Shown here: positions 6,658 to 25,948 of the stretch, piece after piece | Layout of the letters: every line of letters starts with the position of its first letter | How positions within the stretch are numbered: the first letter of the stretch is position 1 | NCBI GenBank assembly: GCA_016927245.1 | Contig: JAFGNA010000013.1 | Coordinates: 1 to 51,483 of the forward strand | Source of the DNA: Candidatus Woesearchaeota archaeon | GTDB taxonomy: Archaea; Nanobdellota; Nanobdellia; Woesearchaeales; WJKR01 | Direction: 5' to 3' | DNA length: 51,483 nt | Made by a program: the position numbers and the translations under genes | Notes under the pieces: model-generated | Told to the model about the DNA's origin: nothing | Databases searched by the model: none | Seen by the model: the letters and a program-made list of their open reading frames with translations, nothing else

Positions 6658-7488
6658 TCAGGCGCCCACGATCAAGCCCGGGTTCACCAACAAGATGATG
6701 CCGAGGAGGAGCATGATGGCCCCGCCGATGAACTTGATGAGCGCCATGGTCGACTTCTCGACCTGCTTCCCCTTGAACGTGTAGCCCAGCACGGTGATGA
6801 TGACGATGAGGGGCAGCACGTAGACGAGGTTGTAGAGCAAGATGTACTTGTAGTACGCGAGGCCGGTGAGCGCCATGCCGGTCAACACGCCGGTGTAGAT
6901 GATAGGGAACCCGGCGGTGCACGGCAGCTCGACCAATGACGCGAAGACCGCCAGGACTATCGACGCGCCTATCAATGCGGGTATGGAGCCGCTCTTGACC
7001 ACGTCCGCGACGTGCCGTATCCTCTTCTTCAAGGGGCCGACGTGCTTGTCCTGCACCATCAGCGTTATCCCTTTCCGGTAGAAGAAGTACTCCTTGCAGT
7101 TGATGAGCCCCGCTACTATGGCGAGGACGCCGATGCCGATGCGTAACGGGTCGATGAAGCCGATGTACTTGAAGACGTTCAGCCACGCGACCATGAACAA
7201 GAAGTAGAACACGTACACGACACCAATAAAACTAAACCCGATGGCGTAGATCTTCTTCCGCGAGTGAGACTCGGAGAGCACCAATGACAAGAGGAGGGTG
7301 AGGACGAACAGGTTGCACGGGTTGAACCCGTCGATGATGGCGATGAGGAACGTGAACAAGGGGAGCGGCATGCTGAGCCCCATCTCTTTCAGCGCTTCCG
7401 GGGAGACGTTCTTCGTGAGGAAGTACGCCGCGACGAGGACGACGACAGCGATGCCCAGGACCACGTACTTCTTGCTCTTCTCTTCCAT
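6658..7488 (-). CDS. CcdA/DsbD-like transmembrane thiol-redox protein
   Basis: 276 residues with about seven membrane helices. It carries the two Cys expected of a CcdA electron carrier: one in DGFNPCNLFVLTLLLSL of the first core helix, one in VELPCTAGFPIIYTG of the fourth. CcdA proteins move electrons from cytoplasmic thioredoxin across the membrane to extracytoplasmic thiol proteins. The upstream neighbour at 7493-7951 is an exported thioredoxin-like lipoprotein, the natural partner, and ends four bases before this gene starts. An extra N-terminal helix (about 8-25) precedes the CcdA core. Confidence 0.85.
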   Translation of the reverse strand: MEEKSKKYVVLGIAVVVLVAAYFLTKNVSPEALKEMGLSMPLPLFTFLIAIIDGFNPCNLFVLTLLLSLVLSESHSRKKIYAIGFSFIGVVYVFYFLFMVAWLNVFKYIGFIDPLRIGIGVLAIVAGLINCKEYFFYRKGITLMVQDKHVGPLKKRIRHVADVVKSGSIPALIGASIVLAVFASLVELPCTAGFPIIYTGVLTGMALTGLAYYKYILLYNLVYVLPLIVIITVLGYTFKGKQVEKSTMALIKFIGGAIMLLLGIILLVNPGLIVGA

Positions 7489-12108: not shown

Positions 12109-12233
12109 TATGAGCCTGTGAGGCCTTTAACCCAAATAATTCTTTTTAATTAACTTTTTTTATGATAACATAGTTAATTTTAGATACTTTTTGTGGTTTT
12201 ATTTGTACCTGATAAGGTTATGAGCTTGTGAGA
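12109..12233. repeat. Two degenerate copies of the tRNA-Arg 3'-end-like repeat
   Basis: TATGAGCCTGTGAGG at 12109-12123 and TATGAGCTTGTGAGA at 12219-12233 resemble TATGAGCCCGGGAGG at the tRNA-Arg (25829-25843), with two and four differences. The spacer is AT-rich and carries a further inverted repeat, AATTAACT (12148-12155) with AGTTAATT (12172-12179). They may be decayed attachment sites at the left edge of the Fic insertion; given the mismatches this is weak. Confidence 0.3.
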
Positions 12234-12242
12234 ATAAGGTCT

Positions 12243-12284
12243 AGGTGACCACAAAATAAGAAAAGTTTAAATATGTGGTCACCT
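12243..12284. promoter_or_regulatory. 42-bp inverted repeat enclosing the fic TATA box
   Basis: AGGTGACCACA (12243-12253) and its perfect inverse TGTGGTCACCT (12274-12284) flank a 20-base AT-rich spacer that contains the TATA box (GTTTAAATAT, 12264-12273) of the fic gene. A protein bound to the arms would cover the promoter. An almost identical structure follows the gene at 13241-13282. Confidence 0.65.
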
Positions 12285-12295
12285 TATTGTATTGT

Positions 12296-13213
12296 ATGTT
12301 CCTCGAGAAGAGAAAATCCGGGAAGAGCATAAAATATTATGTAGTGTATTCTTTTAGGGATGAGCATAATAAAGTCATCAAACTGAGGCGTTATCTCGGC
12401 ACAAATCTTTCTGAAAAACAGTTGGAGAAGCTCTCAAAAAGGGCTGAGGAACTTCTTGAGGAGCAAGCCAAGGGGTTCAAGACAGATGTTTTCAATTTTT
12501 CTTTGACCAATAAACAGCTACAATCACTCAATAAATTTGATGAACAAATCAAAGTCTTTCATCTCAGTGAGCAACAATGGCGACAATTTACAGAAGCATT
12601 TGTCTATAATACCAATGCGATCGAAGGATCGGCTGTTTTGCCAGATGAAGTCCCTATCATCCTTAAGAGTAAAGAGGCAAAAGATGATGAGGAACGAGAA
12701 ACAAAAGGTGTTGCGAAAGCGATCGATTTCATACGTTCGACAAAGCAGGATGTTTCGGTGAGCCTCATTCTGAAATTGCATCAACTCTGTTTCGAAGGGT
12801 CGAAATCGTTTGCTGGGAAATTGCGGGATGTGGAAGTCGTCATTCGAGGAAGAGGCGGTGAGATAATCCATCGAGGATCACCTGCAATTGCTGTAGAAAA
12901 AGAGCTGAAAGAACTAGCTGCTTGGTATAAGAAGAACAAGCAGAAGTTCAAACCACTGGTCTTGGCTGCTATTATGCACAACCAATTTGAAGACATCCAC
13001 CCTTTTCAGGACGGTAATGGTCGCGTTGGACGATTATTGCTGAATTATGTGTTGTTACAGCACAATTACCCGCCAATAAACATTCTTTTTGAAGACAGAG
13101 CAGAATATTACTCTACGCTGCAAGAATACCAGAAGAACGACAAATTACGGCCGACGATGCAATTCTTGATAAAACAATATAAGAAAACGCTCAAGCAGGT
13201 GCGCAAAAAGTGA
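12296..13213 (+). CDS. Fic-domain protein (class II, with inhibitory motif)
   Basis: 305 residues from ATG at 12296, chosen because a TATA box lies about 27 bases upstream; an ATG at 12275 is too close. The Fic core motif is HPFQDGNGRVGR (His235 catalytic), which in this family transfers AMP or another nucleotide to a protein hydroxyl. The preceding inhibitory helix TNAIEG (residues 106-111) matches the class II (S/T)xxxE(G/N) consensus and would keep the enzyme autoinhibited. About 60 N-terminal basic, coiled residues come first. The gene is much AT-richer than its neighbours and bracketed by inverted repeats, pointing to transfer. No antitoxin gene is adjacent, as expected when the inhibitor is intramolecular. 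Confidence 0.92.
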   Translation: MFLEKRKSGKSIKYYVVYSFRDEHNKVIKLRRYLGTNLSEKQLEKLSKRAEELLEEQAKGFKTDVFNFSLTNKQLQSLNKFDEQIKVFHLSEQQWRQFTEAFVYNTNAIEGSAVLPDEVPIILKSKEAKDDEERETKGVAKAIDFIRSTKQDVSVSLILKLHQLCFEGSKSFAGKLRDVEVVIRGRGGEIIHRGSPAIAVEKELKELAAWYKKNKQKFKPLVLAAIMHNQFEDIHPFQDGNGRVGRLLLNYVLLQHNYPPINILFEDRAEYYSTLQEYQKNDKLRPTMQFLIKQYKKTLKQVRKK

Positions 13214-13223
13214 CTTTTTGGCA

Positions 13224-13242
13224 CTAGAATCAAAGATTCTAG
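13224..13242. terminator. Hairpin after fic
   Basis: CTAGAATC and GATTCTAG form a perfect 8-bp stem around an AAA loop, 10 bases past the fic stop. It partly abuts the following 42-bp inverted repeat. It is a probable RNA 3'-end structure. Confidence 0.5.
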
Positions 13243-13282
13243 GTGACTACAAAAACTGAAAAAAAATGATTTGTGGTCACCT
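13241..13282. repeat. Second 42-bp inverted repeat, downstream of fic
   Basis: AGGTGACTACA (13241-13251) and TGTGGTCACCT (13272-13282) repeat the arms found upstream of fic with one base change and exactly the same total length (42) and spacer (20). The paired structures bracket the fic gene, resembling termini of a mobile unit or two binding sites for one regulator. Confidence 0.65.
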
Positions 13283-13294
13283 AACGAAAAGTGG

Positions 13295-13310
13295 TATGAG
13301 CCCGGGAGCC
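13295..13310. repeat. tRNA-Arg 3'-end-like repeat, copy 1 (possible att site)
   Basis: TATGAGCCCGGGAGCC is identical to 20183-20198. Its first 14 bases equal 25829-25842, which is the 3' end of tRNA-Arg (TCG) plus two flanking bases. It lies between fic and the AspRS gene and marks the left edge of the AspRS/S66 cluster. Confidence 0.6.
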
Positions 13311-13339
13311 AACTTCCGACGAGATTTATAAATAGTTCT

Positions 13340-14644
13340 TTATGGTTCTAGTCTTTTCACATCTCTTGGGAACAAACTGGCGTATTTGATGTTGTCGAGT
13401 CCTAGTGCTTTTGCGGTGGTTCTTTCCAGTCCTATGCCCATGCCGCCGTGCGGTGGCATGCCGTACTTGAATGCGTCGAGGTATTTTTCTAGCCCTTTAT
13501 CAGTGAGGCCGAATATTCTTAGATTGCTCAGAAGTTGTTCATAATCATGTATTCGTTGCCCGCCGGTAGTTATTTCTAATCCTCTGTAGATGAGGTCGAA
13601 GCCTTCAGTAATCTCGGGGTTGCCTGGTGTAGGCATCGTGTAGAATGGTCGTTTCTTTGTTGGATAATTGGTGATGAATATGAAGTCGGAGCCGTGTTCT
13701 TCTTGAGCATATTTTGTGAGTAGTCTTTCGGCTTTCGGGTCGATGTCTCCCTCTTCTCTGTTTTTGTAGCCGTATTTTGATTTGATGATGTCAATGCCTT
13801 CATTGAGGGCTAATCGTGGGGTTTCTTTTGGTACATTGATGCTTGTTTTGAAGTATTGTTGTATCTCATCACCATGCTCTTCATTAATTTTTCCTAGGAT
13901 GTATTGCATCATTGATTCTTCCAGGTCCATGAGTTCTGTGTACGAGTCGATGAAACCCATTTCCATGTCTAGGCTGATGTATTCGTTGATGTGTCTTGAG
14001 GTGTTGTGTTTTTCTGCTCTGAAAACAGGTCCTATTTCGAAAACTCTTTCGAGGCCTGATCCTACCATTATTTGCTTGTAGAGCTGCGGGCTTTGTGCGA
14101 GGAATGCGTCTCTTCCGAAGTAGTCTATCTTGAACATGTTCGCTCCGCCTTCAGCTATTTGCGGTACTATTTTCGGTGAGAATATTTGGGTGAATCCTTC
14201 GCTTCTCATGTATTCTGAGAAGTGTTTGGCGATATCGGCCTGTATTTTGAATAGGGCGTTGTTTTTTGGGTTTCTTACGGAGAGTACTCGATGGTTGAAT
14301 TCTTGGTCTGGGTTGTTTTGTGCCTTTGTACTGATTGGTAGTGGGTAGTCTTCTTTCGGGCTGGTGAGTACTTGGTGGTCTGTTGCTTGGAATTCCACTC
14401 CCGGTATGCCGCTTTTCACGCCTGATGTTGTTGGGGTTCCTGTGAACGATACGATGTCATATTTCTTTATGTCGAGCGTTTTCCCTTCTGGGTTGTCGAT
14501 GACTACTTGTATTGGTGAGGTCCGGTCTCTTACTTCTAAGAATGCTATTTTTCCTTTGTCTCGGATGTTGTGCACCCATCCGTATATCTGTTGTCCCTCT
14601 TCGTTGATTGTTGTTGTTAGTTCCTTGATGAGTGTGCGTTTCAT
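13340..14644 (-). CDS. aspS: Aspartyl-tRNA synthetase, archaeal type
   Basis: 434 residues, the usual length of an archaeal AspRS. The N-terminal OB fold (about 1-105) binds the anticodon. The class II core follows, with motif 1 around EGFTQIFSPKIV, flipping loop EGGANMF, motif 2 FRAEKHNTSRHINEYISLDM, Asp-binding GLEITTGGQRIHDY, and motif 3 GIGLERTTAKALGLDN followed by SLFPRDVKRLEP. The OB fold has His in GWVH (His25); as I recall the archaeal work, His here goes with non-discriminating enzymes that charge both tRNA-Asp and tRNA-Asn. A minus-strand TATA near 14662-14674 fits a leaderless ATG. It is less GC-rich than the core genes and divergent from the AspRS-like cluster. Confidence 0.93.
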   Translation of the reverse strand: MKRTLIKELTTTINEEGQQIYGWVHNIRDKGKIAFLEVRDRTSPIQVVIDNPEGKTLDIKKYDIVSFTGTPTTSGVKSGIPGVEFQATDHQVLTSPKEDYPLPISTKAQNNPDQEFNHRVLSVRNPKNNALFKIQADIAKHFSEYMRSEGFTQIFSPKIVPQIAEGGANMFKIDYFGRDAFLAQSPQLYKQIMVGSGLERVFEIGPVFRAEKHNTSRHINEYISLDMEMGFIDSYTELMDLEESMMQYILGKINEEHGDEIQQYFKTSINVPKETPRLALNEGIDIIKSKYGYKNREEGDIDPKAERLLTKYAQEEHGSDFIFITNYPTKKRPFYTMPTPGNPEITEGFDLIYRGLEITTGGQRIHDYEQLLSNLRIFGLTDKGLEKYLDAFKYGMPPHGGMGIGLERTTAKALGLDNIKYASLFPRDVKRLEP

Positions 14645-14793
14645 GCGCTACTTGCGAGTGGATTTATTTTAAAAAAATGTTGGTGACAGGAGCGTTGTTT
14701 TTCCGGTTTTTTTCCGATTTTGTGTCCGTTGGCCGAAATTTTTTTTGTTATCAGGTAGTAATTAACTTAAATAAAAAATTTTTTTTGTGTCTT

Positions 14794-15930
14794 ATGTTAG
14801 GGCCGTACACCGCAGAAGATGATGGCGTCATAGGATATAAGGGAAACCGCGTTTTCCCGAAAAATGAATCCATTGACAACTATGTCTTCACGGAGAGAGA
14901 AATGGCACAAAGGCATAACTCGATAGCGAATGATGGCCTTTGGGGGCACGTAGCGAACATCAATCATCAAATAGCGCAATCGACCATCCGCTACTTCAAC
15001 GAGCAGGGGGCGCTCTTCACGCTCTTGCCGCTGACCACAAGGATGATATCTTCACCAGGGGCGTTCTACGGACGAGAAGCCCTGGACTATACTACTGATA
15101 CTGCGCCTATAACTCTTGATTGGTTCGACCTCGGCCGAAAGGCGTTCCTTGCCGAATCTTCCCAGATATACCTTGAACTAGCACTCATGCAACAAGGGGT
15201 AGATCAGGTATATGCCATATACAACTCTTTCAGGAAAGAAGAGGCCGACACAACACATCTCTCAGAATTCCACCACATTGAATATGAAGGGAAGATATCG
15301 CAGCAAAGGAACGAGCAACATGTGTTGGGGCTGACGAAAAACATTATCAATGATGTCTTGAACAAACAAGAACCTTCGCTTGCCTACTTCTTGGACCAAC
15401 GTGATCTCAAAGAACTGCAGGCGCTGGGAGAAAACATCGAGAGAACACCTGTCATCACTTTGCAAGAGGCCCTGCAAACGCTCTACTTGGAGACGAAAGA
15501 CGACAAATATAGGCCATTCACGCTGGAACACTTCCGTTCGTGGGAAGAAGTGAAGCTTACGGAGATTTATGGCACTCTTATCGGTGTAAACGAGTTCCCT
15601 TTGCTAGAAGTGCCGTTCTACCATGCCGTGGTTGATGGCAAGGAACCTGCTGTTGCTGACAATACCGATTTTATCTGGCCAGGATACAGGGAATATGTCG
15701 GCAGCGGCCAAAGAATAAGAGGTGTTGATGAGCTCTCGCAGAAAGCGGACATATTTAACCTCCCAAAAGAAGACTATGCGCCCTACCTGCAATCAAGGAT
15801 GTTTGATACGTACCGGCAAACAGCCGGTTTTGGCATGGGTTGGGAAAGATTGCTCCAAGGGCTGCTCAAGATGCCGACTATTTGGTCTGCCTCCGCATTC
15901 CCGCGAGGCCATACAACGCTTAAGCCGTGA
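14794..15930 (+). CDS. AspRS/AsnRS-like class II synthetase paralogue lacking the anticodon domain
   Basis: 378 residues from ATG at 14794; a TATA-like ACTTAAATAAAA (14766-14777) precedes it by about 25 bases. It aligns with the catalytic core of AspRS/AsnRS but has no OB fold, only about 50 residues before the core. Motif 2 is FRKEEADTTHLSEFHHIEYE, where the RHxxE of the true enzyme has become THLSE. The amino-acid site GSGQRIRGVDEL and motif 3 GFGMGWERLLQGLLKM are intact, so it can probably still make an adenylate. Without an anticodon domain it is unlikely to charge tRNA normally. Known relatives with this build include archaeal AsnRS-like asparagine synthetase. It is first in a run of four overlapping or abutting genes. 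Confidence 0.85.
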   Translation: MLGPYTAEDDGVIGYKGNRVFPKNESIDNYVFTEREMAQRHNSIANDGLWGHVANINHQIAQSTIRYFNEQGALFTLLPLTTRMISSPGAFYGREALDYTTDTAPITLDWFDLGRKAFLAESSQIYLELALMQQGVDQVYAIYNSFRKEEADTTHLSEFHHIEYEGKISQQRNEQHVLGLTKNIINDVLNKQEPSLAYFLDQRDLKELQALGENIERTPVITLQEALQTLYLETKDDKYRPFTLEHFRSWEEVKLTEIYGTLIGVNEFPLLEVPFYHAVVDGKEPAVADNTDFIWPGYREYVGSGQRIRGVDELSQKADIFNLPKEDYAPYLQSRMFDTYRQTAGFGMGWERLLQGLLKMPTIWSASAFPRGHTTLKP

Positions 15931-16931
15931 TTAAGATGATTCCTCCAAGAAAGGTATCGGGTAGACGAGTGATAGGGCTGGTGGCGCCTTCCCTGCCGGG
16001 AAAGGTCATCGATGGACGGCAGTTCCGGAGAGGTGTCGACCGACTTCGGCAACTAGGCTACGAAACGATAGTGGGGGAAGCTTGTCTCGATCGTCCGTAT
16101 GATCTGGGTGCGTCAATCGCTGCTCGCGCACGTGATATCAACAGGTTCTTCGAGGATGATCAAATAGATGCTATCATGGGGGTTATTGGAGGCTATAATG
16201 CTAACGAAGTGCTTCCTCATATCGATTATGGGCTTGTCGTGAAAAATCCCAAACCATTCTTTGGATATAGTGATCTTTCAGCAATTAATCTCTCGTTGCT
16301 CTCTCAGGCGGACCAGATGAGTTACTCGGGTTCGATGCTCGTGTCTTTTTGTCCCAAACAATTGGCTTCCATAACAATAGATGGTTTCTTGCAAGCGATA
16401 AAAGGGGTGAATCTGACGGATGAATGGAAGGCTCCTGCGAGTTACGCTTATGACGATTGGTTCAGAGAAGACGTTCCTGTTAGGGAGTGGCACGCTTCAG
16501 AAGGTATCTATGTCATCAATGAAGGGGTGACGGAAGGGACGATTATACCGACCAACCTGGACACCCTTCTTTCGCTCGTAGGGACTAATTATCTGCCGTC
16601 GCTTCAAGGAGTTGTACTCTTGTTAGAAGAAAACATTCAGGCTACGAATAACCTGTTCAGAAGGAACTTCGCCCAACTGGCGCAGACGGGTATTATGGAC
16701 GGGCTTAATGCCTTGGTCATGGGGAGGTTTCCAGGTCCGCAACGAGAAAACAAAGACGCGCTCACCGAAGTGCTGCATCATTATCTCCCCGCAAAAGAGT
16801 ATCCTGTCATCACGAACGTCAACTATGGCCATACCGATCCGAGCAGCACATTCCTAGTGGGGGGTACTGCCACTATCAATACGTACGATCGAAAGTTCAC
16901 GATCGCGAGACCAGAGGTTGAACGACAATGA
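15927..16931 (+). CDS. S66 serine peptidase, MccF-like (copy A)
   Basis: 334 residues. The GTG start overlaps the stop of the previous gene by four bases (GTGA); ATG at 15936 is the alternative. S66 triad candidates are Ser115 in FFGYSDLSA, Glu234 in VLLLEEN, and His302 in NYGHTDP. The order and spacing match LD-carboxypeptidase/MccF proteins. Features of the MccF branch are the Trp-containing loop before the Glu (DDWFREDVPVREWHASEG) and NEGVTEGTIIPTNLDTLLSL. There is no signal peptide, so it acts in the cytoplasm. Archaea have no bacterial murein, so cleavage of an amide in a nucleotide-peptide or small metabolite, as MccF does with microcin C, is the better hypothesis. Confidence 0.85.
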   Translation: MIKMIPPRKVSGRRVIGLVAPSLPGKVIDGRQFRRGVDRLRQLGYETIVGEACLDRPYDLGASIAARARDINRFFEDDQIDAIMGVIGGYNANEVLPHIDYGLVVKNPKPFFGYSDLSAINLSLLSQADQMSYSGSMLVSFCPKQLASITIDGFLQAIKGVNLTDEWKAPASYAYDDWFREDVPVREWHASEGIYVINEGVTEGTIIPTNLDTLLSLVGTNYLPSLQGVVLLLEENIQATNNLFRRNFAQLAQTGIMDGLNALVMGRFPGPQRENKDALTEVLHHYLPAKEYPVITNVNYGHTDPSSTFLVGGTATINTYDRKFTIARPEVERQ

Positions 16932-17761
16932 GTCATGACGATGAAGTGTTGGCTTATTTTGCGGACAAAGCGGAAGGTTACGACTTGGTGGAACATCAAC
17001 ACTATTGGCGATTATCTGATGAACTGCTCTGGCACCTATTGACAAAAGATGTCCTCGCGCAATTCAATGATGATTTCTCCTTCCTCGATGCGGGCGGAGG
17101 AACTGGCAGGTGGAGCATGAGATTATTGGATTCGTACAGCAAAGCTACAGGCACTATCTATGACCTTTCTCCTGAAATGCTCGAGCAGGCGAAGAAAAAA
17201 GTTAATGGTGATAGGGCTGGACGGCTACAGATAATCAATGGTGACATTACAGACATGTTTGGCGTGCCGGACGAGCAATTCGATGTCACTTATAATTTTC
17301 ATAACGTATTGGGTTTCGTGGATGGCCCTGAACGAGCACTTGCGGAGATGGGCCGTGTGACCAGGAAAGGCGGTTATGTGGTCTCGGTTGTTCCGAACAA
17401 GTATCACCTCGTGTTTTTTAATCTGCAACAAGGGAATGTTGAAGAAGCGGAAAAAGCCGCTTTGAACAATATGGGTCGTTTCACCCAGGACATGCCTGCT
17501 ATACGCTTGTTCACGCCGCATTCTCTTAGCCGATTATATGGTCGTGTTGGCTTGGAAGCTGTTTTTGTGAAAGGGTTTCCAGTAACCATTTACCCTGGCT
17601 ATCAGGAAACGAGGATATCGGGCGATACCGCTTCTCTAAAGGATATCTTGTCAGGTGAAGAAAGCTATGGTCGGATTTTAGCGATTGAAAAAAACCTTGT
17701 TGAGTATGCGGATGCTGCTGCCCGAGGAAACAATTTATTGATGGTCGGGAAGAAATCGTGA
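16928..17761 (+). CDS. SAM-dependent methyltransferase (class I)
   Basis: 277 residues; the ATG overlaps the stop of the S66 gene (ATGA). The Rossmann core shows motif I FLDAGGGTGRWSMRLL (about 51-66), the acidic end of strand 2 in TIYDLSPEMLEQA, motif III-like INGDITDM, and motif IV FDVTYNFHNVLGFVDGPERA, as in ubiquinone/menaquinone-type (Methyltransf_11/25) enzymes. The C-terminal 130 residues are a substrate lid. The methyl acceptor is unknown; sitting between two synthetase-like/peptidase pairs suggests it acts on the same small molecule, or blocks its action. Confidence 0.88.
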   Translation: MSHDDEVLAYFADKAEGYDLVEHQHYWRLSDELLWHLLTKDVLAQFNDDFSFLDAGGGTGRWSMRLLDSYSKATGTIYDLSPEMLEQAKKKVNGDRAGRLQIINGDITDMFGVPDEQFDVTYNFHNVLGFVDGPERALAEMGRVTRKGGYVVSVVPNKYHLVFFNLQQGNVEEAEKAALNNMGRFTQDMPAIRLFTPHSLSRLYGRVGLEAVFVKGFPVTIYPGYQETRISGDTASLKDILSGEESYGRILAIEKNLVEYADAAARGNNLLMVGKKS

Positions 17762-17773
17762 TTGGTGTTAGTG

Positions 17774-19027
17774 ATGGCTATAGATGATATAATAAGAGTT
17801 GATGGGGGATCTCAATCAATGATTGGAAGGATAGCATCAATTAGAAAAATGGGGAAGAATCTTGCTTTTGTGCAACTGGAGAACCATCATGGTGCCTTGC
17901 AGGCGGTGGTTGTCAATCCGCGTGCGTATGGCTTGAATAAAGGGTCGGTGATTCGCGTATCCGGGACTGTTGTCAAGAACGATGATGTTACCTCAGGAAC
18001 GCCTGGTTACGAGTTGCAAGCAGATGTCGTGGAGTTGTTGTCGAAGAACCATGATAAGTATAACAATCCGAATGATGTCCTGCTGGATAAGAGTTCGCAA
18101 ATTGATCGACGACACCTCTACTTACGTAATCCTTCTGTAAGGAATATCTTTGAGGCGAAATCTTTGTTTATGAAAACTTGTCGTAGTGTGCTTGATTATT
18201 ATGGTTTCTTAGAGGTGCAGTCGCCTACCGTGGTCGGCGAATCGGTTGAAGGGCCGGTGACCGCATTCGGAGTTGATTATTATGGGAAAGATGCTTTTCT
18301 TACTTTGAGTAATATGCTCTATCATGAGATGCTCATGGCGGGTGATTTTGAGAAAGTTTATGAGATGAGGACCTTGTTTCGGCAAGACAAGTCAAAAACT
18401 TCCGTGCACCTTAGCGAATTTACCATCCTTGATTACACTGCTGCTAATCATTCTCGAAATGACCTTATGGGAATCACTGAAGAGATTGTTCAAGCTTCAG
18501 CGAGTCAACTGCAAAGAAAAGGTTTTTCACTTGGCGTCGAGCCGAAGACTCCTTTTCCTGTGGTAACTTATTCTGAAGTGATAGGTTATCTTAACGAACA
18601 GGGTGCGGATATCGTTTGGGGGTCGACGCATCAGTTGCCCAAGCAGTATTCTTCTCTTTTGGAAAGGCGCTTTCCGAGCTTTTTTTGGCTGATAGACCAA
18701 CCTGAAGCTTCCAAAGCGTTCTTCACCAGCGCCCGGGAGGAGGATGGCCGCATGGTTTGTAATGATTTCCAGTTGTGGTACGCGAAGAATACCAACTTGG
18801 CGGATGGCTCGGAACGGGTGGTCGAAAAGGAGGATGTTATTGCTAAGATGGTCGATCGCGGGATGGACCCAAGGCATTTCTCGCATTATTTGAGTTCATT
18901 GGATGGTCTTTATCCTAATGCGGGGGTCGGGTTGGGGGTCGAGCGAACGTTCATGACTCTTATGGGGTTGGATAACATCAAGGATGTCATGCTTTTCCCG
19001 AGGAACATGAAGACGTTGTATCCTTGA
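17774..19027 (+). CDS. AspRS-like class II synthetase paralogue with OB fold
   Basis: 417 residues from ATG at 17774, which has GGTG six bases upstream; TTG 17762 and GTG 17765/17771 are alternatives. The OB fold (about 1-95) starts MIGRIASIRKMGKNLAFVQL, with Ala where AspRS has His or Trp. The core keeps motif 1 (GFLEVQSPTVV), flipping-loop analogue ESVEGPVTAF, motif 2 FRQDKSKTSVHLSEFTILDY (SRHxxE altered to SVHLSE), and motif 3 GVGLGVERTFMTLMGLDNIK. The Asp-pocket segment GLExTTGGQRI is replaced by TNLADGSERV. It thus folds like AspRS but probably uses another amino acid or has another job. It abuts the methyltransferase gene. Confidence 0.85.
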   Translation: MAIDDIIRVDGGSQSMIGRIASIRKMGKNLAFVQLENHHGALQAVVVNPRAYGLNKGSVIRVSGTVVKNDDVTSGTPGYELQADVVELLSKNHDKYNNPNDVLLDKSSQIDRRHLYLRNPSVRNIFEAKSLFMKTCRSVLDYYGFLEVQSPTVVGESVEGPVTAFGVDYYGKDAFLTLSNMLYHEMLMAGDFEKVYEMRTLFRQDKSKTSVHLSEFTILDYTAANHSRNDLMGITEEIVQASASQLQRKGFSLGVEPKTPFPVVTYSEVIGYLNEQGADIVWGSTHQLPKQYSSLLERRFPSFFWLIDQPEASKAFFTSAREEDGRMVCNDFQLWYAKNTNLADGSERVVEKEDVIAKMVDRGMDPRHFSHYLSSLDGLYPNAGVGLGVERTFMTLMGLDNIKDVMLFPRNMKTLYP

Positions 19028-19069
19028 GCGGAGGAAAATATATTTAAACAGTGTGTTTGTAAAGGTTGA

Positions 19070-20104
19070 ATGAAGATGGTGGTTTATCCGGAAAGGCTTG
19101 TCAAGGGTGACACGATAGCGTTTGTCTCTCCTTCTGGCGCGCTCGGTGCTCTTTGTCCGCACCGGCTGGAACAAGCGAAGGCTTTCCTTGAGAAGCAAGG
19201 CTTTCATGTCGAGGAGTACCTGACGACAAGGGCTAAGAGGGGCTTCTCTACGGGCACGCCGCAAGAACGGGTCGCTGATTTGCATGCTGCGTTCAAGGAT
19301 GAGCGGGTGAAAGGGATTGTCTGTACGATAGGGGGGTTGGCTGCCAATGAGTTGTTGCCGCTCATCGATTATGACCTGATCAAGGCCAATCCTAAGATAT
19401 TCTGCGGCTATTCTGATATTACCCATCTGCATAGCGCTTTTTTGAGAAAAGCGGGTCTCGTCACGTTTTATGGGCCTTCTGCGATGAATCAGTTCGGTGA
19501 GTTTCCTGAGCCTTTGTCTTACACGTGGGAGCACTTCAAGAAAGCGACGATGAGTGTCGGGCCGGTAGGGCGGGTGTTACCTTCCGATGAGTGGACTGAT
19601 GAGATCCTTGACTGGTTCACGAAAGCTGATCAGGCCAGGCCGAGGAAGCTTCGCAAGAATGAGGGTTTCTCTTGGTTCGGAAGCGGTAAGGCAAAAGCCC
19701 CTATTGTCGGTGGTTGCTTGAACTCCTTGCACAAGCTCAAAGGGACGCCTTTTGCGCCTGAGTATGATGGGAGAATAGTCTTCTTTGAGACTTCTGAGGG
19801 GGAGGATTTCAGGAGGGGGGTGCCCCTAGGGGTTGTTGATTCGCAACTTGTCGATCTGGTGAATGCGGGCGTCTTTAAGAAAGTGAAAGGTGTTATCGTC
19901 GGAAGGCCTTTTGGATACGGTAGTGAAGAGCACGAACAGTTCATCGACGTTGTGAAGAAGAGGTTGGCTCCTTTGGATATCCCTTTGCTCATGAACTTCA
20001 ACATAGGCCACTGCGATCCTATCATGAGCATCCCTCTCGGCACGGTTGTTTCTATGGATGCCGATAATAAAGAATTGCTGTTTGTTGAGCCAGGGGTGCA
20101 CTGA
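19070..20104 (+). CDS. S66 serine peptidase, MccF-like (copy B)
   Basis: 344 residues, about the length of E. coli MccF. Triad candidates are Ser115 (CGYSDITH), Glu240 (VFFETSEG) and His314 (IGHCDP). The loop PSDEWTDEILDWFTKA (Trp175, Trp182), and the later NEGFSWFGSGKAKAPIVGGC, are typical of MccF-like members, where a Trp stacks on the nucleobase of the substrate. No signal peptide. It has its own TATA (ATATATTTAAACA, about 19036-19048) 25-30 bases before the ATG, so it can be expressed apart from the upstream genes. It differs enough from copy A for the pair to be ancient paralogues rather than a recent duplication. Confidence 0.9.
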   Translation: MKMVVYPERLVKGDTIAFVSPSGALGALCPHRLEQAKAFLEKQGFHVEEYLTTRAKRGFSTGTPQERVADLHAAFKDERVKGIVCTIGGLAANELLPLIDYDLIKANPKIFCGYSDITHLHSAFLRKAGLVTFYGPSAMNQFGEFPEPLSYTWEHFKKATMSVGPVGRVLPSDEWTDEILDWFTKADQARPRKLRKNEGFSWFGSGKAKAPIVGGCLNSLHKLKGTPFAPEYDGRIVFFETSEGEDFRRGVPLGVVDSQLVDLVNAGVFKKVKGVIVGRPFGYGSEEHEQFIDVVKKRLAPLDIPLLMNFNIGHCDPIMSIPLGTVVSMDADNKELLFVEPGVH

Positions 20105-20182
20105 GTTCTTGACATAAACCAGTTTTTCTGCGCAAAACCTTTTACGAACAATAGTAATCCCAGAAATGTGACATGAATGTAA

Positions 20183-20198
20183 TATGAGCCCGGGAGCC
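20183..20198. repeat. tRNA-Arg 3'-end-like repeat, copy 2 (possible att site)
   Basis: TATGAGCCCGGGAGCC, identical to 13295-13310; 14 bases equal the tRNA-Arg end at 25829-25842. It falls between the second S66 gene and the strongly AT-rich block. The 220-base gap around it (20105-20324) shows no other gene. Confidence 0.6.
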
Positions 20199-20324
20199 CA
20201 CATGTCTCTTTTGGACGTCTTTTGGACTCCGTTATGCGCGTTGTAATACTTTTTCCGAGGTTTTGTGTTGGTTGCGTGTTGTTTTGGGAATATGACACTT
20301 TTCCTATGATTAAAAAACATTAAG

Positions 20325-21295
20325 CTATTTCTTCTTGTATACCCACATGTCTGAAATTCCTTTTTTTGGAAGCAATCTATAGCTAATGTCTTCGATTCCA
20401 GTTATTGATTTGTATAATAGAAAATCTGCTATGACTTTTGGTTTTTGTTTAAAAACATAATCCCAGTCTATTTTTGTCCGTTCCATCTCTCTTGTTGTTT
20501 TAAATTCCTTTTTTGTTTCATCCAAATGCCTTAAATCCAAAAAAATTCTTCTATATATTTTGAAATGCTCTCTTAGTGAAATATATGGTTGATAAAATGC
20601 CATTGCATCGTATCGAGTTCTTATTGTTCCCGGGCCATATTTTGTATGGATGAAGTTAGGCATAAATGTATCATCACATACATCTTTTTGAGCTGGTATT
20701 TCATATAAATCCTTATTTCTTATCATGAAAGCTCTTCCATGAAAGTAAATTTTTGATTTTTTTTCAAATTCTTTCGAAACGTTCTCTTGGGGAAATGCAT
20801 CAACATATGATTTAAATTCAGAAACATCATTGACAGATATTTCTGATTCTGGATGTAGAGCTCTGACGTGTAATATGTCAAAAAGAACTGATTGCCAAAC
20901 CGATAACGACTCAGATCTTTTTGGTACGGGCCAAGATCCTGCAACTATTAAAGAAGGATTTTTTTTATTTCGTCATATAATTTTTCAGAACAATTTTCTT
21001 CTAAGGTTACATCAGCATCAACAAATAGTAAAGGAACATCTTTCTCAACATGATTCGTTATTGCTTTTTGAGCAAATGAAATGCCTTTCTTGCTATGGAT
21101 AATACTAATATTTAGTCTGGCATATTTTTTTCTTGATTCGCTAATCTTCTCTTCTGTTTTATCGGTACAACCATTGAGACAAATTATTGTTTCTAAATTA
21201 CCTTTTATTTTTTGTTGATTAAGAGATTCAAGACAAGTCTCGATGGTGTTTTCCTCATTATATGCTGCAATTCCAAAGTAAAGATTGGGTTTCAT
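20325..21295 (-). pseudogene. Family 2 glycosyltransferase with a homopolymer frameshift
   Basis: The N-terminal 115 codons (from ATG 21295) encode a GT-A start: FGIAAYNEENTIETCLESLN and the DxD-type LFVDADVTLEEN. The frame then stops just after a run of eight A (plus-strand T 20959-20966). Adding one base restores an open frame (NPSLIVAGSWPVPKRSES onwards) that continues without a stop to 20325. So one gene of about 320 residues is split by a single-base deletion in a homopolymer. It could be a sequencing error, a recent mutation or a slippage site. The start overlaps the previous stop (TAATG). It would transfer sugar from a nucleotide donor; the acceptor is unknown. Confidence 0.8.
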
Positions 21296-22179
21296 TAGTA
21301 CATCACAGTTTTTGCATAGGTGTCTTTACCGGTTTTTTTTAGCATTCTTGACTCTTTTAGTGACTTTAATGCCTCGTCTCTTCGTCCGAGTGCTTTAAGA
21401 GCCATTGCCTTATCATAATGGGCTTCGGCATAATGAGGATCGATTTCTATGGCTACCAAATGATCATTCAGAGCATTCTGAAAATCTTTTTTAATAAAAT
21501 AACCAAATCCTCTGTTATTAATGGCTAATGAAGATTGTGGCATTAGTTCGATAGCTTGATTAAATGCAATAATCATTTCATCAAATTCATTGAGGTAGAG
21601 GTGAGCATTACCCTTATTTCTCCACCCTTCGCCAAATTGTTCGTTTATAGAAATTGCTCTATTAAAATCAGCTAATGCATCCTTAAAGTTATTTAAATAC
21701 TTTAAACAGCGACCTCTAAGATTATATGCTTCAACAAAATTTTTATTTTTTTCGATTGCTTGAGTAAAAAAGTTTACTGCTAAATCTGGTTTTTCTCTAA
21801 GGAGTAGACTGTGTCCTTTATTGTATGATAATCTTGCAGGGAACCCATTGATATCAACATCTTTATCAAATAGTTCAACAAACGTTTTTTTAAATTCTTC
21901 AACCTTGACTTTATAAATTGGAAACTCGCCCATGTTACAAAAGATATAATCGGCAATATTTTCGTTTGTTGCTCTGCCTACAATATCATCAAGATATGAA
22001 TTTGAAAGTTCATCAGTTATTTTGTTTAATTCACGCATTGGATTAGTGTGATCAATTCCTGCCACGAAGCCATTCTTCAATTCACCATTAATAATAACTT
22101 CAACGAAATATTTGTCTATTTTGGTTTCTCTTGAGCCATGTTGTGCCTCAAAGTTACTTAGAAATCCCATTTTTGCCAT
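21295..22179 (-). CDS. Degenerate PTPS/QueD-like domain fused to TPR repeats
   Basis: 294 residues. Residues about 24-95 read like 6-pyruvoyl-tetrahydropterin synthase/QueD: YFVEVIINGELKNGFVAGID, then ITDELSNSYLDDIVGRATNE and IADYIF, matching the G-E-L ... ELDHxYLND ... PTxENIAxYI pattern. The zinc motif HGH is missing (KIDKYF instead) and LDHxYLND is LSNSYLDD, so catalysis is probably lost; only His14 remains. From about 118 to 285 there are five TPR units (for example PDLAVNFFTQAIEKNKNFVE). The start overlaps the upstream stop (TAATG). A scaffold that binds a pterin-like ligand and partners of this operon is one idea. Confidence 0.7.
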   Translation of the reverse strand: MAKMGFLSNFEAQHGSRETKIDKYFVEVIINGELKNGFVAGIDHTNPMRELNKITDELSNSYLDDIVGRATNENIADYIFCNMGEFPIYKVKVEEFKKTFVELFDKDVDINGFPARLSYNKGHSLLLREKPDLAVNFFTQAIEKNKNFVEAYNLRGRCLKYLNNFKDALADFNRAISINEQFGEGWRNKGNAHLYLNEFDEMIIAFNQAIELMPQSSLAINNRGFGYFIKKDFQNALNDHLVAIEIDPHYAEAHYDKAMALKALGRRDEALKSLKESRMLKKTGKDTYAKTVMY

Positions 22180-23303
22180 TATTGGATCACCTTAGCAATG
22201 TCTCCAAAATTGCTTGAGATTTGTTCTAATCGTTTGTTAATTATTTCAGAGGAAACTTTATTTTCTAGTTTTGCTGATTTTGCTCTAGGATGTTCTGAAT
22301 AAGCAAAACACGTGAAAAAATCGAATCGTGCCTGTTCAAGTAATTGAAGTGTTTGGTGGAAATCGTCCTTTGTTTCTCCTGGAAAACCAACCATTATATG
22401 AGTCCCTATATCAAAATCAAATTTTTTCATCAGATTCATTGATTGAATAATATTCTCTCTAGAATATTTTCTGTTCATTAATTCAAGGATTTTGTTACTT
22501 CCTGATTGGATGGGGAAAGTAATTCCCCCAATTCTTTTGTTTTGGTTTGCTTTCTGAAATATTTTTTCATAATTATTTAAATCATTAATAAGCCAGCTGA
22601 TTCCAAAATCATGGATAAATAATTTGAAATGACCTTCCGATGAGATTATTTTATTTAGAAGAGTTGAGAAGTTAGTTTTATTATCAATTCCATACGCACC
22701 TGTATCTCCCGCCATCAGCATAATTGTTGGTTCTTTTTTATCAATTGCATAATCAACTTTTTGAAGAATACTTTCAATGGAATCGCTTTTTAATTTACCT
22801 GTTGCTTCTTTAATCATGCAATAGGAACAGTCATTCAGGCAACCCTCAGATATTCTTATCTTATAACCATTTTTTGCCTTTTCAAAGCGGTTTCTTGCAT
22901 AATTAGTTGACTTTTCAATTTGTTTTCTTTTTAGGAAAGCTTTTGTTGGATAGGGAATCTCCCCCATTCTTTTTTTAGGAGCGAATATTTTATCTAATGA
23001 TTCTACAGATCGAGGAGAGAAAGAGTAAAAAACATTAAACTCGTTTATTTTTTCAGGACTTATTTTGGGGAGGCAACCACCTACTAGTATTTTTGCATAG
23101 GGATTTTTCTGTTGCAATTCTGAAATTTCGCGAAGTGATTTTTCCTCATTGTACTGATCTACACCACAAGTAATAACACAAAGATAGTCTGCATCCTCGG
23201 GATGATTAGTGATGTGTATATCGTTGTCCTTAAAATAGTTGATTATCCTCTGAGCATCCAAATCTCTTTGCTCACAACCAGTAGAACTAACATACGCTTT
23301 CAT
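22179..23303 (-). CDS. Radical SAM methylthiotransferase (MiaB/CDKAL1-like) without TRAM domain
   Basis: 374 residues. The N-terminal UPF0004 domain has its three cluster Cys (STGCEQ, VITCGVD, GGCLPK), and the radical SAM core has EGCLNDCSYCM (Cx3Cx2C) for the second cluster. Later MTTase blocks are present: FPIQSGSNKILELMNRKY and IMVGFPGETKDDFHQTL. Usual family members end in a TRAM RNA-binding domain; here the protein stops before one. A complete TRAM-bearing member is encoded at 37391. Loss of TRAM suggests a substrate other than bulk tRNA, or an RNA or protein delivered by a partner. It overlaps its neighbours by one base at both ends. Confidence 0.88.
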   Translation of the reverse strand: MKAYVSSTGCEQRDLDAQRIINYFKDNDIHITNHPEDADYLCVITCGVDQYNEEKSLREISELQQKNPYAKILVGGCLPKISPEKINEFNVFYSFSPRSVESLDKIFAPKKRMGEIPYPTKAFLKRKQIEKSTNYARNRFEKAKNGYKIRISEGCLNDCSYCMIKEATGKLKSDSIESILQKVDYAIDKKEPTIMLMAGDTGAYGIDNKTNFSTLLNKIISSEGHFKLFIHDFGISWLINDLNNYEKIFQKANQNKRIGGITFPIQSGSNKILELMNRKYSRENIIQSMNLMKKFDFDIGTHIMVGFPGETKDDFHQTLQLLEQARFDFFTCFAYSEHPRAKSAKLENKVSSEIINKRLEQISSNFGDIAKVIQ

Positions 23304-24448
23304 TATGTTAAATCTCCCCTATGAACTTCCCAATCAATGGTGCTTCTCATACTTACGGGAAATATTGTGTTGACATAAGGGTGCTCTTGGAATAACTTTG
23401 ACTCTGCGTATGCTATCTCCAAGATTTGTTCTTCTGAGGGTTGAGGATGTTTACTCAAAACAGATATCGGGTCTGCATGAAAAATATTTGATGCGATACC
23501 TATCCCCTTTTGAAGAAAATATTCGTGACCCTCTATGCTACTTTGTGGATGTTCAAGACCCCAAACTAATCCACAATACACATTAAAATTCCCGAAAACA
23601 TCTTTTGCAGCATCAAGTGCGTCAACCCATTTATCATAACCATACAGTGCGTGTTTGCCAGGACATATTTCTTTGAATTTTTGACGATTATATACTTCTA
23701 TGTTAAAAGCTATTGAAGTAACGCCTGCTTCTTTATACTCTTCTAATAATTTGAAATCATTGGGTGGATGAGCCAATAAATGGGTGGGAATCTTATCTTC
23801 TAATGATTCATACATCCATGTCAGTGGTTTGATGACTTTTTCTCTAGTTATTTGGTCGTTTTCTGGTGTTCCTGCTGTTATGGAAATAAGAGGTATGTCT
23901 CTCCATAGGGTCTTTTCAAAAATGTTTGTTGCTTCGCGAATATTATCTTCAGAGAATTCGGATACCATATATTTTCCGACAGTGCTTCGTGTATTTTTCA
24001 TAGAACAAAACCCACATGCTTTTCCTTCTGGGAAATAAAAGCATTCGGGATAAAGAAAAAAACCTGGAGTGTCAGATCCTGCAACCGCAATTATTGACTC
24101 CGTGGGAGTGCCATCTGATAACTTCTTATCAAAATATGCAGGTCTTTCTGGTAAAGTAATCTCCTGAATAAACGTGTTATTGTTATACAATTGAATAACG
24201 TCATCATCATATTTAAGATTCCACGGCGAACCCTCTCGTCTTAATAGCGCGCTTATTATGTTGTGACCTAATTCTAGAACTTGAGGAAATTTGTTTTTCT
24301 GCGTGACATTTCTGCTGGTCTTTCCATAAACAAATTGATTATCATAAAATGGTTCCTTTATTTTAGTAAAAAGATCGATTTCGAAATCGATTCCTTGAGC
24401 GAGCAAAGATGTTTTTAATTCAATTGTAGCTTTTCTATCCAAAACCAT
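23303..24448 (-). CDS. Radical SAM protein with unusual Cx8CxxC cluster motif
   Basis: 381 residues. A Cys triad is seen in PECFYFPEGKACGFCSM: Cys136, Cys145, Cys148, spacing Cx8Cx2C instead of Cx3Cx2C. Aromatic-Cys (GFC) at the third position, SITAGTPENDQ as a GGE-like strand, and IAFNIEVYNRQKFKEICPGK with VYCGLVWGLEHPQ support a radical SAM barrel. Downstream lies the methylthiotransferase gene, overlapping by one base (TAATG), so this starts a four-gene operon. A minus-strand TATA (about 24474-24485) precedes the ATG. The N-terminal 110 residues are not recognised. Substrate unknown. Confidence 0.75.
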   Translation of the reverse strand: MVLDRKATIELKTSLLAQGIDFEIDLFTKIKEPFYDNQFVYGKTSRNVTQKNKFPQVLELGHNIISALLRREGSPWNLKYDDDVIQLYNNNTFIQEITLPERPAYFDKKLSDGTPTESIIAVAGSDTPGFFLYPECFYFPEGKACGFCSMKNTRSTVGKYMVSEFSEDNIREATNIFEKTLWRDIPLISITAGTPENDQITREKVIKPLTWMYESLEDKIPTHLLAHPPNDFKLLEEYKEAGVTSIAFNIEVYNRQKFKEICPGKHALYGYDKWVDALDAAKDVFGNFNVYCGLVWGLEHPQSSIEGHEYFLQKGIGIASNIFHADPISVLSKHPQPSEEQILEIAYAESKLFQEHPYVNTIFPVSMRSTIDWEVHRGDLT

Positions 24449-24529
24449 ATTTTAATCACTACTAGGAAATAGTATCTATTTATAATGGTTTCGCGAACAT
24501 TTTTAAAAAATACTATTGTTCTTATCGTT

Positions 24530-25117
24530 GTGAAACAAAAATTTGCCGTTGATCTCGATGAAACTCTTGCACATACAAATATTCTTTGGGCTGACCATCA
24601 TATTAAATATTATGGAAATCCAGAAAAGTTGAATGCGAATGAAATAGTGAGAAAGTATTCCTTTGTTAAAAACGTCCCTTACTGGCAGTTCGCAGAAGCC
24701 TCAAAATGGGTAGAGTCCCATATTAACTCCAGTGACGCCAAACTTGAAATTCCAGTCATTAAGCAAGCTAAAGAGAACATTCAATACATTCCCATTGCTT
24801 GCTATTTAACAAACAGACCTTTCAGCACTATTCAAGGAACAAAAGAGTGGTTGTCCTTACATAACTTTCCTAAGAGGCCCGTACTCTCAGCAAATAAGGG
24901 TCTGGAGTGGAAAGCTCAACAGTTAGAGCGATTTTATCCCTATATATCAGGAATAATAGATGATAATGTGGAAATAACTAACTATCTTTCAGAACAATAT
25001 GAAGGTAAAATTATACTTTATTCAAACCAAGAAAATATGGCTACTCATTTAGATGTTGTTGTATGTCCTACTTGGAATGATATTGCTATTGAAGTTCAAA
25101 GATTGATCAGAGAATAA
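24530..25117 (+). CDS. HAD-like hydrolase (5'-nucleotidase-like)
   Basis: 195 residues from GTG at 24530; ATG at 24485 would add 15 residues of no HAD character, and a TATA-like TTTTAAAAAATACT (24501-24514) sits about 25 bases before the GTG. The catalytic strand is FAVDLDETLAH (nucleophile and acid Asp). Motif II Thr lies in ACYLTNRPFS, and motif IV acid pair in GIIDDNVEI. The layout resembles deoxynucleotidase-type HAD proteins. It is divergent from the radical SAM operon and overlaps the end of the convergent kinase gene by 22 bases. Confidence 0.75.
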   Translation: MKQKFAVDLDETLAHTNILWADHHIKYYGNPEKLNANEIVRKYSFVKNVPYWQFAEASKWVESHINSSDAKLEIPVIKQAKENIQYIPIACYLTNRPFSTIQGTKEWLSLHNFPKRPVLSANKGLEWKAQQLERFYPYISGIIDDNVEITNYLSEQYEGKIILYSNQENMATHLDVVVCPTWNDIAIEVQRLIRE

Positions 25118-25572
25118 ATTTCTTCAACAACGTCTTCTTTTCTTTTATTTGCTGTTTGTATGTTTATGCCTTCTTTGACTGATGAGGTCATGTTGAATAC
25201 TTGCGTTATTGCCTCTGTAGACATTGGTTTTCTTCTCTGGTTATTTCTTTGCTGGCAAAGGTCTATGCTGGCTAATAATGTGAATATTTGGATGTGTTCA
25301 CATTGTTTTTTTAAGTGGGAAATCTGTTCTTGTCTATAAAAACAGCCATCTATGATGATGACGTTGTTATCCTTTGCTTGTTGCATGATGATTTCATTAG
25401 CTCTAATGAAATTTTCTGCTGAAATACCATTGCCTTCAATAGTGTCTAGTTTGTGTTTTTCTAAAACTTGATCCATCGAGTAATAGTTCGCATTAAGTTT
25501 CTTGGCTAATATTTTTGCTATAGTACTTTTTCCCACTCCTGCAGGACCTCTAATAACAATGCAATAAACCAT
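25096..25572 (-). CDS. Small P-loop kinase (AAA_33-like)
   Basis: 158 residues. Walker A GPAGVGKS (9-16) follows the initial strand MVYCIVIR; the second strand holds VIIIDGCFYRQEQ, and an Arg-rich lid (CQQRNNQRRKPMS) closes the site. The size and motifs fit small nucleotide, nucleoside or metabolite kinases (AAA_33, Zeta/adenylylsulfate-kinase-like). The phosphate acceptor is unknown. It is last in the AT-rich block before the tRNA-Arg gene. Confidence 0.8.
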   Translation of the reverse strand: MVYCIVIRGPAGVGKSTIAKILAKKLNANYYSMDQVLEKHKLDTIEGNGISAENFIRANEIIMQQAKDNNVIIIDGCFYRQEQISHLKKQCEHIQIFTLLASIDLCQQRNNQRRKPMSTEAITQVFNMTSSVKEGINIQTANKRKEDVVEEIYSLINL

Positions 25573-25830
25573 TTATAGATATAATGCTTCTTTATTTATT
25601 AATATTCCTGCTATGGCATAGAAGATCGTTGTTTTATAAACAAACCTTCTTTGCTTGAGTTTGCTAGTTCTACTGACACACTTTGCTGATACATGTTTAG
25701 TTTTATTTTTTGACAGAGAATATGAAGATTCCAACACATGTCCTTATTAGGTAAAAGGACACCAGTAGGCTCATATACCCTCAAAAAGAGCTTTAGAAGG
25801 CTTGTATCTTTAGAATTATGAGAAAAAGTA
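25573..25830. other. AT-rich spacer between kinase and tRNA-Arg
   Basis: A minus-strand frame runs from the tRNA gene into this spacer and ends at 25611 (about 60 codons beyond the tRNA). Its product has no recognised similarity. In SSV-type integration the integrase gene overlaps the tRNA in just this way, so a remnant is conceivable, but the peptide shows no recombinase motif. Otherwise I see nothing in the spacer. Confidence 0.3.
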
Positions 25831-25843
25831 TGAGCCCGGGAGG
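25829..25843. repeat. tRNA-Arg 3'-end repeat, copy 3 (presumed original att site)
   Basis: TATGAGCCCGGGAGG is the acceptor/T-stem end of tRNA-Arg (TCG) plus two bases beyond it. Fourteen bases match the copies at 13295 and 20183. The tRNA end is the usual target of archaeal integrating elements. Confidence 0.6.
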
Positions 25844-25948
25844 ATTCGAACCCCCGATCTTCCGGTTTCCTGCGAAATCCGATGTTCTTTCGAACTTTTC
25901 GGATATTCACCGAAGCCGGATGTTCTATCCAGACTAAACTACGGGCCC
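25831..25948 (-). tRNA. tRNA-Arg (anticodon TCG) with a 43-base intron
   Basis: On the minus strand GGGCCCG pairs with CGGGCTC (one G-U), discriminator A, CCA not encoded. The D stem is GTTT/GAAC; the anticodon stem TCCGG/CCGGA encloses the loop C-T-TCG-G-A, giving anticodon TCG. T stem GGGGG/CCTCC holds loop TTCGAAT. Between positions 37 and 38 an extra segment of about 43 bases forms its own helix, the canonical archaeal intron site cut by the splicing endonuclease. A minus-strand TATA (about 25972-25984) is in the right place. The 3' end carries the repeat found at 13295 and 20183. Confidence 0.92.

What the first reader, a model, noticed from the sequence alone, without database searches (positions are those of the whole stretch)
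20325..24448. Operon of unusual radical SAM, TRAM-less methylthiotransferase, degenerate PTPS-TPR fusion and glycosyltransferase
Four minus-strand genes each overlap by one base in TAATG, so they are translated together. The set has no housekeeping equivalent I know. A divergent HAD-like protein and a small kinase stand beside it. Low GC suggests transfer. A pathway that thiomethylates and glycosylates a small molecule, peptide or RNA is plausible.
Basis: partly seen in the sequence, partly recalled or inferred. Interest (0 to 1): 0.68.

Follow-up and report, generated by a model that had tools for sequence, protein, structure and literature searches.

The report
Mobile archaeal cassette with unknown pathway
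A six-gene set with two radical-SAM enzymes and a sugar-transfer enzyme recurs in unrelated tiny archaea, and in three of four copies it sits between repeats (at two tRNA genes and a toxin gene) like a mobile cassette, so it probably makes an undescribed small molecule that has spread by gene transfer.

Summary
The four-gene operon is real, but its last gene, a family 2 glycosyltransferase, is broken in this genome by a one-base frameshift in an A8 run. The flanking kinase recurs in two of them, the HAD phosphatase in one. The N-terminal domain of the TPR protein is a true but catalytically dead PTPS/QueD homologue, absent from the Micrarchaeota copy. The main new result lies outside the stated coordinates: the cluster fills a 5.6-kb, integrase-free, low-GC cassette bounded by exact 14-bp copies of the 3' end of an intron-containing tRNA gene. 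The G310 copy is bounded the same way at another tRNA gene, the G792 copy at the 3' end of a vapC gene. Two further cassettes sit in tandem in the window. Mobility and linkage are well supported. Function is inferred: most likely tailoring of a small molecule, since there is no room for a precursor peptide and related radical-SAM genes neighbour nucleotide kinases, NUDIX and glycosyltransferase genes. The substrate is unknown.

The parts
20183..25842 (.). integrase-free cassette (5.6 kb) bounded by exact copies of the tRNA 3' end
   Evidence: TATGAGCCCGGGAG at 20183-20196 and 25829-25842; GC steps at both ends
25831..25948 (-). intron-containing tRNA gene, probably tRNA-Arg(UCG) (anticodon inferred by hand); its 3' end is the attachment sequence
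   Evidence: Rfam tRNA 51.8 bits
25829..25842 (.). attachment repeat (tRNA 3' end)
20183..20196 (.). attachment repeat, distal end of this cassette
13295..13308 (.). attachment repeat, distal end of the second tandem cassette
12109..12122 (.). degenerate attachment repeat (2 mismatches) where host GC resumes
25096..25572 (-). P-loop kinase (AAA_33/AAA_18/CPT-like), conserved member of the cluster
24485..25117 (+). HAD-type phosphatase with DxDxT, convergent with the kinase; homologue in the G792 cassette
23303..24448 (-). radical SAM enzyme, Cx8CxxC, NF045502
22179..23303 (-). methylthiotransferase-like radical SAM enzyme with three UPF0004 cysteines, no TRAM
21295..22179 (-). degenerate PTPS/QueD domain (about residues 1-112) fused to TPR repeats
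20325..21295 (-). family 2 glycosyltransferase, broken by a one-base frameshift at the A8 run 20959-20966

Best explanation
It is the cargo of a small mobile cassette that inserted at the 3' end of a tRNA gene and has no integrase of its own. The cargo is a six-gene pathway: a translationally coupled operon (radical SAM, TRAM-less methylthiotransferase, PTPS-like/TPR protein, family 2 glycosyltransferase) plus a convergent kinase and HAD phosphatase pair. Shown: linkage in four genomes, tandem insertion, flanking repeats, absence of integrase, loss of the PTPS catalytic and zinc residues. Inferred: the pathway tailors a host-supplied small molecule, probably sugar- or nucleoside-like. In this model the kinase activates or tags it by phosphorylation and the HAD enzyme removes the phosphate, the Cx8CxxC enzyme does one radical step, the methylthiotransferase replaces a C-H by C-SCH3, and the glycosyltransferase adds a sugar. 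The TPR protein serves as a non-catalytic scaffold or substrate holder in place of the missing TRAM domain; its dead PTPS domain is an optional addition.
For: Same gene order in G310, G792 and a Micrarchaeota contig; kinase in G310 and G792, HAD in G792. Window repeats with genome-wide control: exact 14-mer 4 times in 1.1 Mb, 3 of them here; reversed control 0. GC steps at the repeats. G310 set lies between the tRNA-Gln 3' end and a 16-bp copy of it. G792 set lies between 31-bp repeats (29/31) at a vapC 3' end, spacing 5651 against 5646 in the window. No tyrosine recombinase in the window; those of this genome are on other contigs. Cassettes leave almost no room for a precursor-peptide gene. 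Distant relatives of the radical SAM gene neighbour thymidylate-kinase-like and family 2 glycosyltransferase genes in G477, G726, G866 and probably G035 (glycosyltransferase call weak there), and NUDIX in G035 and an Agrobacterium plasmid. G310 also carries inositol-dehydrogenase-like, class III aminotransferase and GNAT genes. PTPS loses HxH, Cys and LDH.
Against: No substrate or product is shown. The kinase and HAD have weak matches to polynucleotide kinase families and the kinase to L-seryl-tRNA kinase, which would fit RNA. TPR scaffolds often bind proteins. Only four close copies, one cut off at its contig end and one with a broken glycosyltransferase. The Micrarchaeota copy has no adjacent kinase or HAD of this type and no demonstrable repeats. 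The broken gene could mean that the pathway is decaying here.
Confidence: 0.5

Rival explanations
1. The cluster modifies an RNA or protein of the host (tRNA, rRNA, ribosomal protein): the methylthiotransferase acts as MiaB or RimO do, with the TPR/PTPS protein replacing TRAM as the substrate-binding part, and the kinase/HAD pair acts on RNA ends.
For: Methylthiotransferases characterised so far act on tRNA or ribosomal protein S12 (own knowledge). Weak matches of kinase and HAD to polynucleotide kinase families and of the kinase to L-seryl-tRNA kinase. No precursor peptide in the cassettes.
Against: TRAM, the nucleic-acid binding domain, is missing in all four copies. Scores lie far below every MiaB, MtaB and RimO equivalog cut-off. 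Sporadic mobile distribution fits accessory metabolism better than core RNA maturation. Linked glycosyltransferase, aminotransferase and inositol-dehydrogenase genes are unusual for RNA modification.
Confidence: 0.22
2. The cassette is a defence or antagonism module: its product, or a modification it makes, blocks viruses or competitors.
For: Mobile cargo cassettes at tRNA genes commonly carry defence genes (own knowledge). The tandem neighbours hold a Fic protein that matches PADLOC candidate defence families and S66 peptidases with extra AspRS/AsnRS genes, a combination known from microcin C immunity (own knowledge).
Against: None of the radical SAM, PTPS-TPR, glycosyltransferase or HAD proteins matches a PADLOC family; only weak hits for the kinase and the methylthiotransferase. 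No toxin or sensor is apparent.
Confidence: 0.18
3. A peptide (RiPP) pathway: the radical SAM enzymes and glycosyltransferase modify a ribosomal peptide encoded elsewhere.
For: A distant relative (G726) has a SPASM-type radical SAM and a short PqqD-like protein beside it (read by eye); the glycosyltransferase matches SunS weakly.
Against: No gap in the G792 cassette is large enough for a conserved precursor gene. No leader-binding (RRE/PqqD) or SPASM domain in the window proteins.
Confidence: 0.08

Closest known systems
MiaB/RimO methylthiotransferases (TIGR00089)
   Same: UPF0004 domain with its three cysteines, CxxxCxxC radical SAM core
   Different: no TRAM; below the subfamily cut-off (243.6 against 251 bits) and far below all equivalog cut-offs; separate clade from the housekeeping archaeal copies
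NF045502 variant radical SAM family (near TIGR04043 MSMEG_0568)
   Same: 330 bits, full length; Cx8CxxC
   Different: genomic setting: not with the nitrilase cluster; close copies are tied to methylthiotransferase, TPR protein and glycosyltransferase
PTPS/QueD (PF01242)
   Same: homology, E 6e-9 to a solved archaeal PTPS homologue
   Different: zinc and catalytic residues lost; fused to TPR; absent in one copy
Cis-mobilizable elements (CIMEs) and other integrase-less tRNA islands
   Same: tandem segments bounded by attachment repeats at a tRNA 3' end, no integrase; CIMEs are discussed in PMC7563491 and PMC5704250, tRNA islands in PMC4383910 (found by search, not read in full)
   Different: in DPANN archaea; biosynthetic cargo; same cargo at three different target sites; transfer machinery not identified

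Membership tests
MiaB/RimO methylthiotransferase | UPF0004 domain with three conserved cysteines plus CxxxCxxC | tested here: met
   cysteines 10, 46, 77/78 and 155/156, 159/160, 162/163 invariant in four copies
MiaB/RimO methylthiotransferase | C-terminal TRAM domain | tested here: not met
   protein ends before TRAM; no Pfam TRAM match
MiaB/RimO methylthiotransferase | score over an equivalog cut-off | tested here: not met
   best equivalog-type scores 159-189 bits against cut-offs of 315-357
PTPS/QueD enzyme | zinc histidines, catalytic Cys and LDH motif | tested here: not met
   HxH and Cys gone, LDH replaced by LSN, LEG or LSG
PTPS/QueD enzyme | sequence homology to the fold | tested here: met
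   E 6e-9; G792 over cut-off
NF045502 variant radical SAM | score over curated cut-off | tested here: met
   330.4 against 125 bits
MSMEG_0568/nitrilase cluster | TIGR04043 cut-off and linked nitrilase | tested here: not met
   70.8 against 303.7 bits; no nitrilase seen in four loci
Integrase-less tRNA island (CIME-like) | direct repeats of the tRNA 3' end bounding the segment | tested here: met
   (window and G310; in G792 the target is a vapC 3' end)
Integrase-less tRNA island (CIME-like) | no recombinase inside | tested here: met
   no PF00589 match on the window contig or on the G310 and G792 cassette contigs
Integrase-less tRNA island (CIME-like) | excision and mobilisation in trans | not testable with these tools
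   needs reads or experiments
RiPP cluster | precursor peptide gene | tested here: not met
   no room inside the G792 cassette; distant genes not searched

The most novel reading that the evidence does not exclude
A mobile family of integrase-free biosynthetic cassettes in DPANN archaea moves a complete, undescribed pathway between phyla. Its methylthiotransferase uses a TPR/dead-PTPS adaptor in place of TRAM to thiomethylate a free small molecule, which would be a new substrate class for this enzyme family.
Probability: 0.3. Interest if true: 0.8.

Novelty: new variant of a known kind. Interest (0 to 1): 0.6.

Why it matters
Very little is known about specialised metabolism or mobile elements of DPANN archaea, which live on other archaea with minimal genomes. 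A pathway that such cells gain and lose as a cassette is a candidate for chemical interaction with their hosts. It also gives a testable case of a methylthiotransferase freed from its RNA-binding domain, and of tandem cargo cassettes without integrases at archaeal tRNA genes.

Tried and rejected
Viral origin: three viral-contig scans found no relative, and phage records gave only one distant hit. PHROGs gave only weak glycosyltransferase, kinase and HAD matches. Gfo/Idh gene in G792: only the first about 20 residues resemble that of G310, by eye; tblastn found no hit at 1e-3, so it is not counted. Literature search for the gene combination gave nothing. Fold search with the radical SAM model places it among biotin synthase, lipoyl synthase, PylB and HydE (TM 0.42-0.46), too loose to name a reaction. 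Fold search with the PTPS-TPR model was swamped by TPR hits. Synteny with the only held genus mate failed: the contig was 3.3 kb. ARAGORN in intron mode called the window tRNA SeC(tca); rejected because the exon structure fits a seven-base loop CUUCGGA; the anticodon stays an inference.

Full report
Observation. Three minus-strand ORFs (24448-23303, 23303-22179, 22179-21295) and the start of a fourth (21295) are chained by single-base TAATG overlaps. The proteins are a radical SAM enzyme (NF045502, 330 bits), a methylthiotransferase-like enzyme without TRAM, a PTPS-like domain fused to TPR repeats, and a family 2 glycosyltransferase. The fourth gene is frameshifted: its N-terminal 115 aa and the following 212 codons lie in different frames, yet the two halves are 53% and 57% identical to the intact G310 protein. 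The break is in an A8 run at 20959-20966, which is absent at that place in G310 and G792. Even conservation on both sides means a very recent mutation, a sequencing error or slippage, not old decay.

Linkage elsewhere. A relative of the PTPS-TPR protein, matched over its whole length, appeared in one of 371 sampled genomes of the phylum besides the window's own (G310, 48%), next to the methylthiotransferase and the rest of the set. A genome-collection scan gave a Micrarchaeota contig with radical SAM, methylthiotransferase, TPR protein without PTPS, and glycosyltransferase. An order-wide search gave G792. Close radical SAM copies occur in 3 of 353 genomes of the order and in 1 of 245 sampled genomes of the Micrarchaeota phylum. 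Pairwise identities are 54-65% for the radical SAM and 44-50% for the methylthiotransferase, no lower for the other phylum than within the order, while the housekeeping ArgRS is 46-50% within the order. This fits transfer as a unit. The kinase (40-50%) recurs in G310 and G792, and the HAD protein (34%) in G792; the convergent kinase/HAD pair is inverted between the window and G792.

Cassette. A covariance search found an intron-containing tRNA gene at 25831-25948. Its 3' end, TATGAGCCCGGGAG, recurs exactly at 20183 and 13295 and with two mismatches at 12109 (0.38 matches expected by chance at two mismatches). In the whole genome the exact 14-mer occurs four times, three of them here, and the reversed control pattern never. 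GC changes in steps at these repeats: host about 0.55, then about 0.40 (12.1-13.3 kb), about 0.47 (13.3-20.2 kb), about 0.33 (20.2-25.8 kb), host again. So three cassettes lie in tandem, and the finding fills the one nearest the tRNA gene. In G310 the set lies between the 3' end of a tRNA-Gln gene with an intron (7076-7175) and a 16-bp copy at 14919. In G792 it lies between 31-bp repeats, 29/31 identical, one of which is the 3' end of a vapC-like gene. No tyrosine recombinase lies on any of these contigs, although each genome has some elsewhere. The Micrarchaeota contig ends inside the glycosyltransferase, so its flanks cannot be judged.

Anatomy. The radical SAM model (pLDDT 85) has a beta-rich N-terminal part and a barrel nearest to biotin synthase, lipoyl synthase, PylB and HydE. 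Methylthiotransferases of the operon form one clade, 100/100, apart from seven housekeeping copies. The PTPS domain aligns with solved PTPS/QueD proteins but lacks HxH, the cysteine and LDH, and the Micrarchaeota protein lacks the domain altogether, so it cannot be essential. The PTPS-TPR model is confident (pLDDT 91.6). The G792 cassette has no intergenic gap for a conserved precursor gene.

Function. Distant relatives of the radical SAM enzyme are repeatedly beside thymidylate-kinase-like and family 2 glycosyltransferase genes, once with NUDIX in G035 and once with NUDIX and GalE on an Agrobacterium plasmid. G310 adds inositol-dehydrogenase-like, aminotransferase and GNAT genes inside its repeats. 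This company points to small, phosphorylated, sugar-like or nucleoside-like substrates. That is an inference from neighbourhood and family, not a demonstration; the RNA/protein rival keeps about one chance in five. The neighbour set of distant relatives was chosen from search hits, not sampled at random, and two of them (G806, G094) lack kinase and glycosyltransferase.

Verdict. Operon, linkage and repeat-bounded cassette: about 0.9. Small-molecule tailoring: about 0.5. Enzyme steps and substrate: open.

Noticed in passing
window 13295-20183: Second tandem cassette: AspRS (13340-14644), AsnRS-like (14632-15930), S66 peptidase of the LD-carboxypeptidase/MccF kind (15927-16931), methyltransferase (16928-17761), second AspRS/AsnRS-like (17762-19027), second S66 peptidase (19070-20104). 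Extra AspRS plus MccF-like peptidases recall microcin C immunity (own knowledge). Not linked to the radical SAM set in the other three loci.
   Followed up: partly
window 12109-13295: Third tandem segment with a Fic protein (12275-13213) that matches SoFic and PADLOC candidate families.
   Followed up: partly
L115 7749-11844 (G000:C6): Two one-mismatch copies of the attachment 14-mer bound a 4.1-kb, GC 0.30-0.33 segment with a kinase-like/nucleotidyltransferase protein and two NUDIX proteins: probably another cassette of the same genome, with no tRNA detected there.
   Followed up: partly
L114 8467 (G000:C10:43466): Fourth exact copy of the attachment 14-mer, next to a tRNA-3'-end-like stretch and a short LAGLIDADG-like ORF.
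   Followed up: partly
L078 1-7467 (Lachnospiraceae G400:C90): Partial close radical SAM gene at a contig end, downstream of another radical SAM and a GT1-like gene, with a tyrosine recombinase and tRNA-Thr nearby; the last residues look like a foreign join.
   Followed up: partly
L094 563-829 (G726): The tRNA-Ser 3' end is repeated at 811-829, just before a kinase, glycosyltransferase, radical SAM, SPASM-like radical SAM and PqqD-like cluster.
   Followed up: partly
L080 2746-5622 and L096 4185-7069: Distant radical SAM relatives followed by an about 350-aa protein (no Pfam match for the one in L096) and a CYTH-like protein, in two genomes.
   Followed up: no
L075, L077 (Lachnospiraceae G554, G641): Distant radical SAM relatives beside nitrogenase-like and ABC transporter genes (read by eye).
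   Followed up: no
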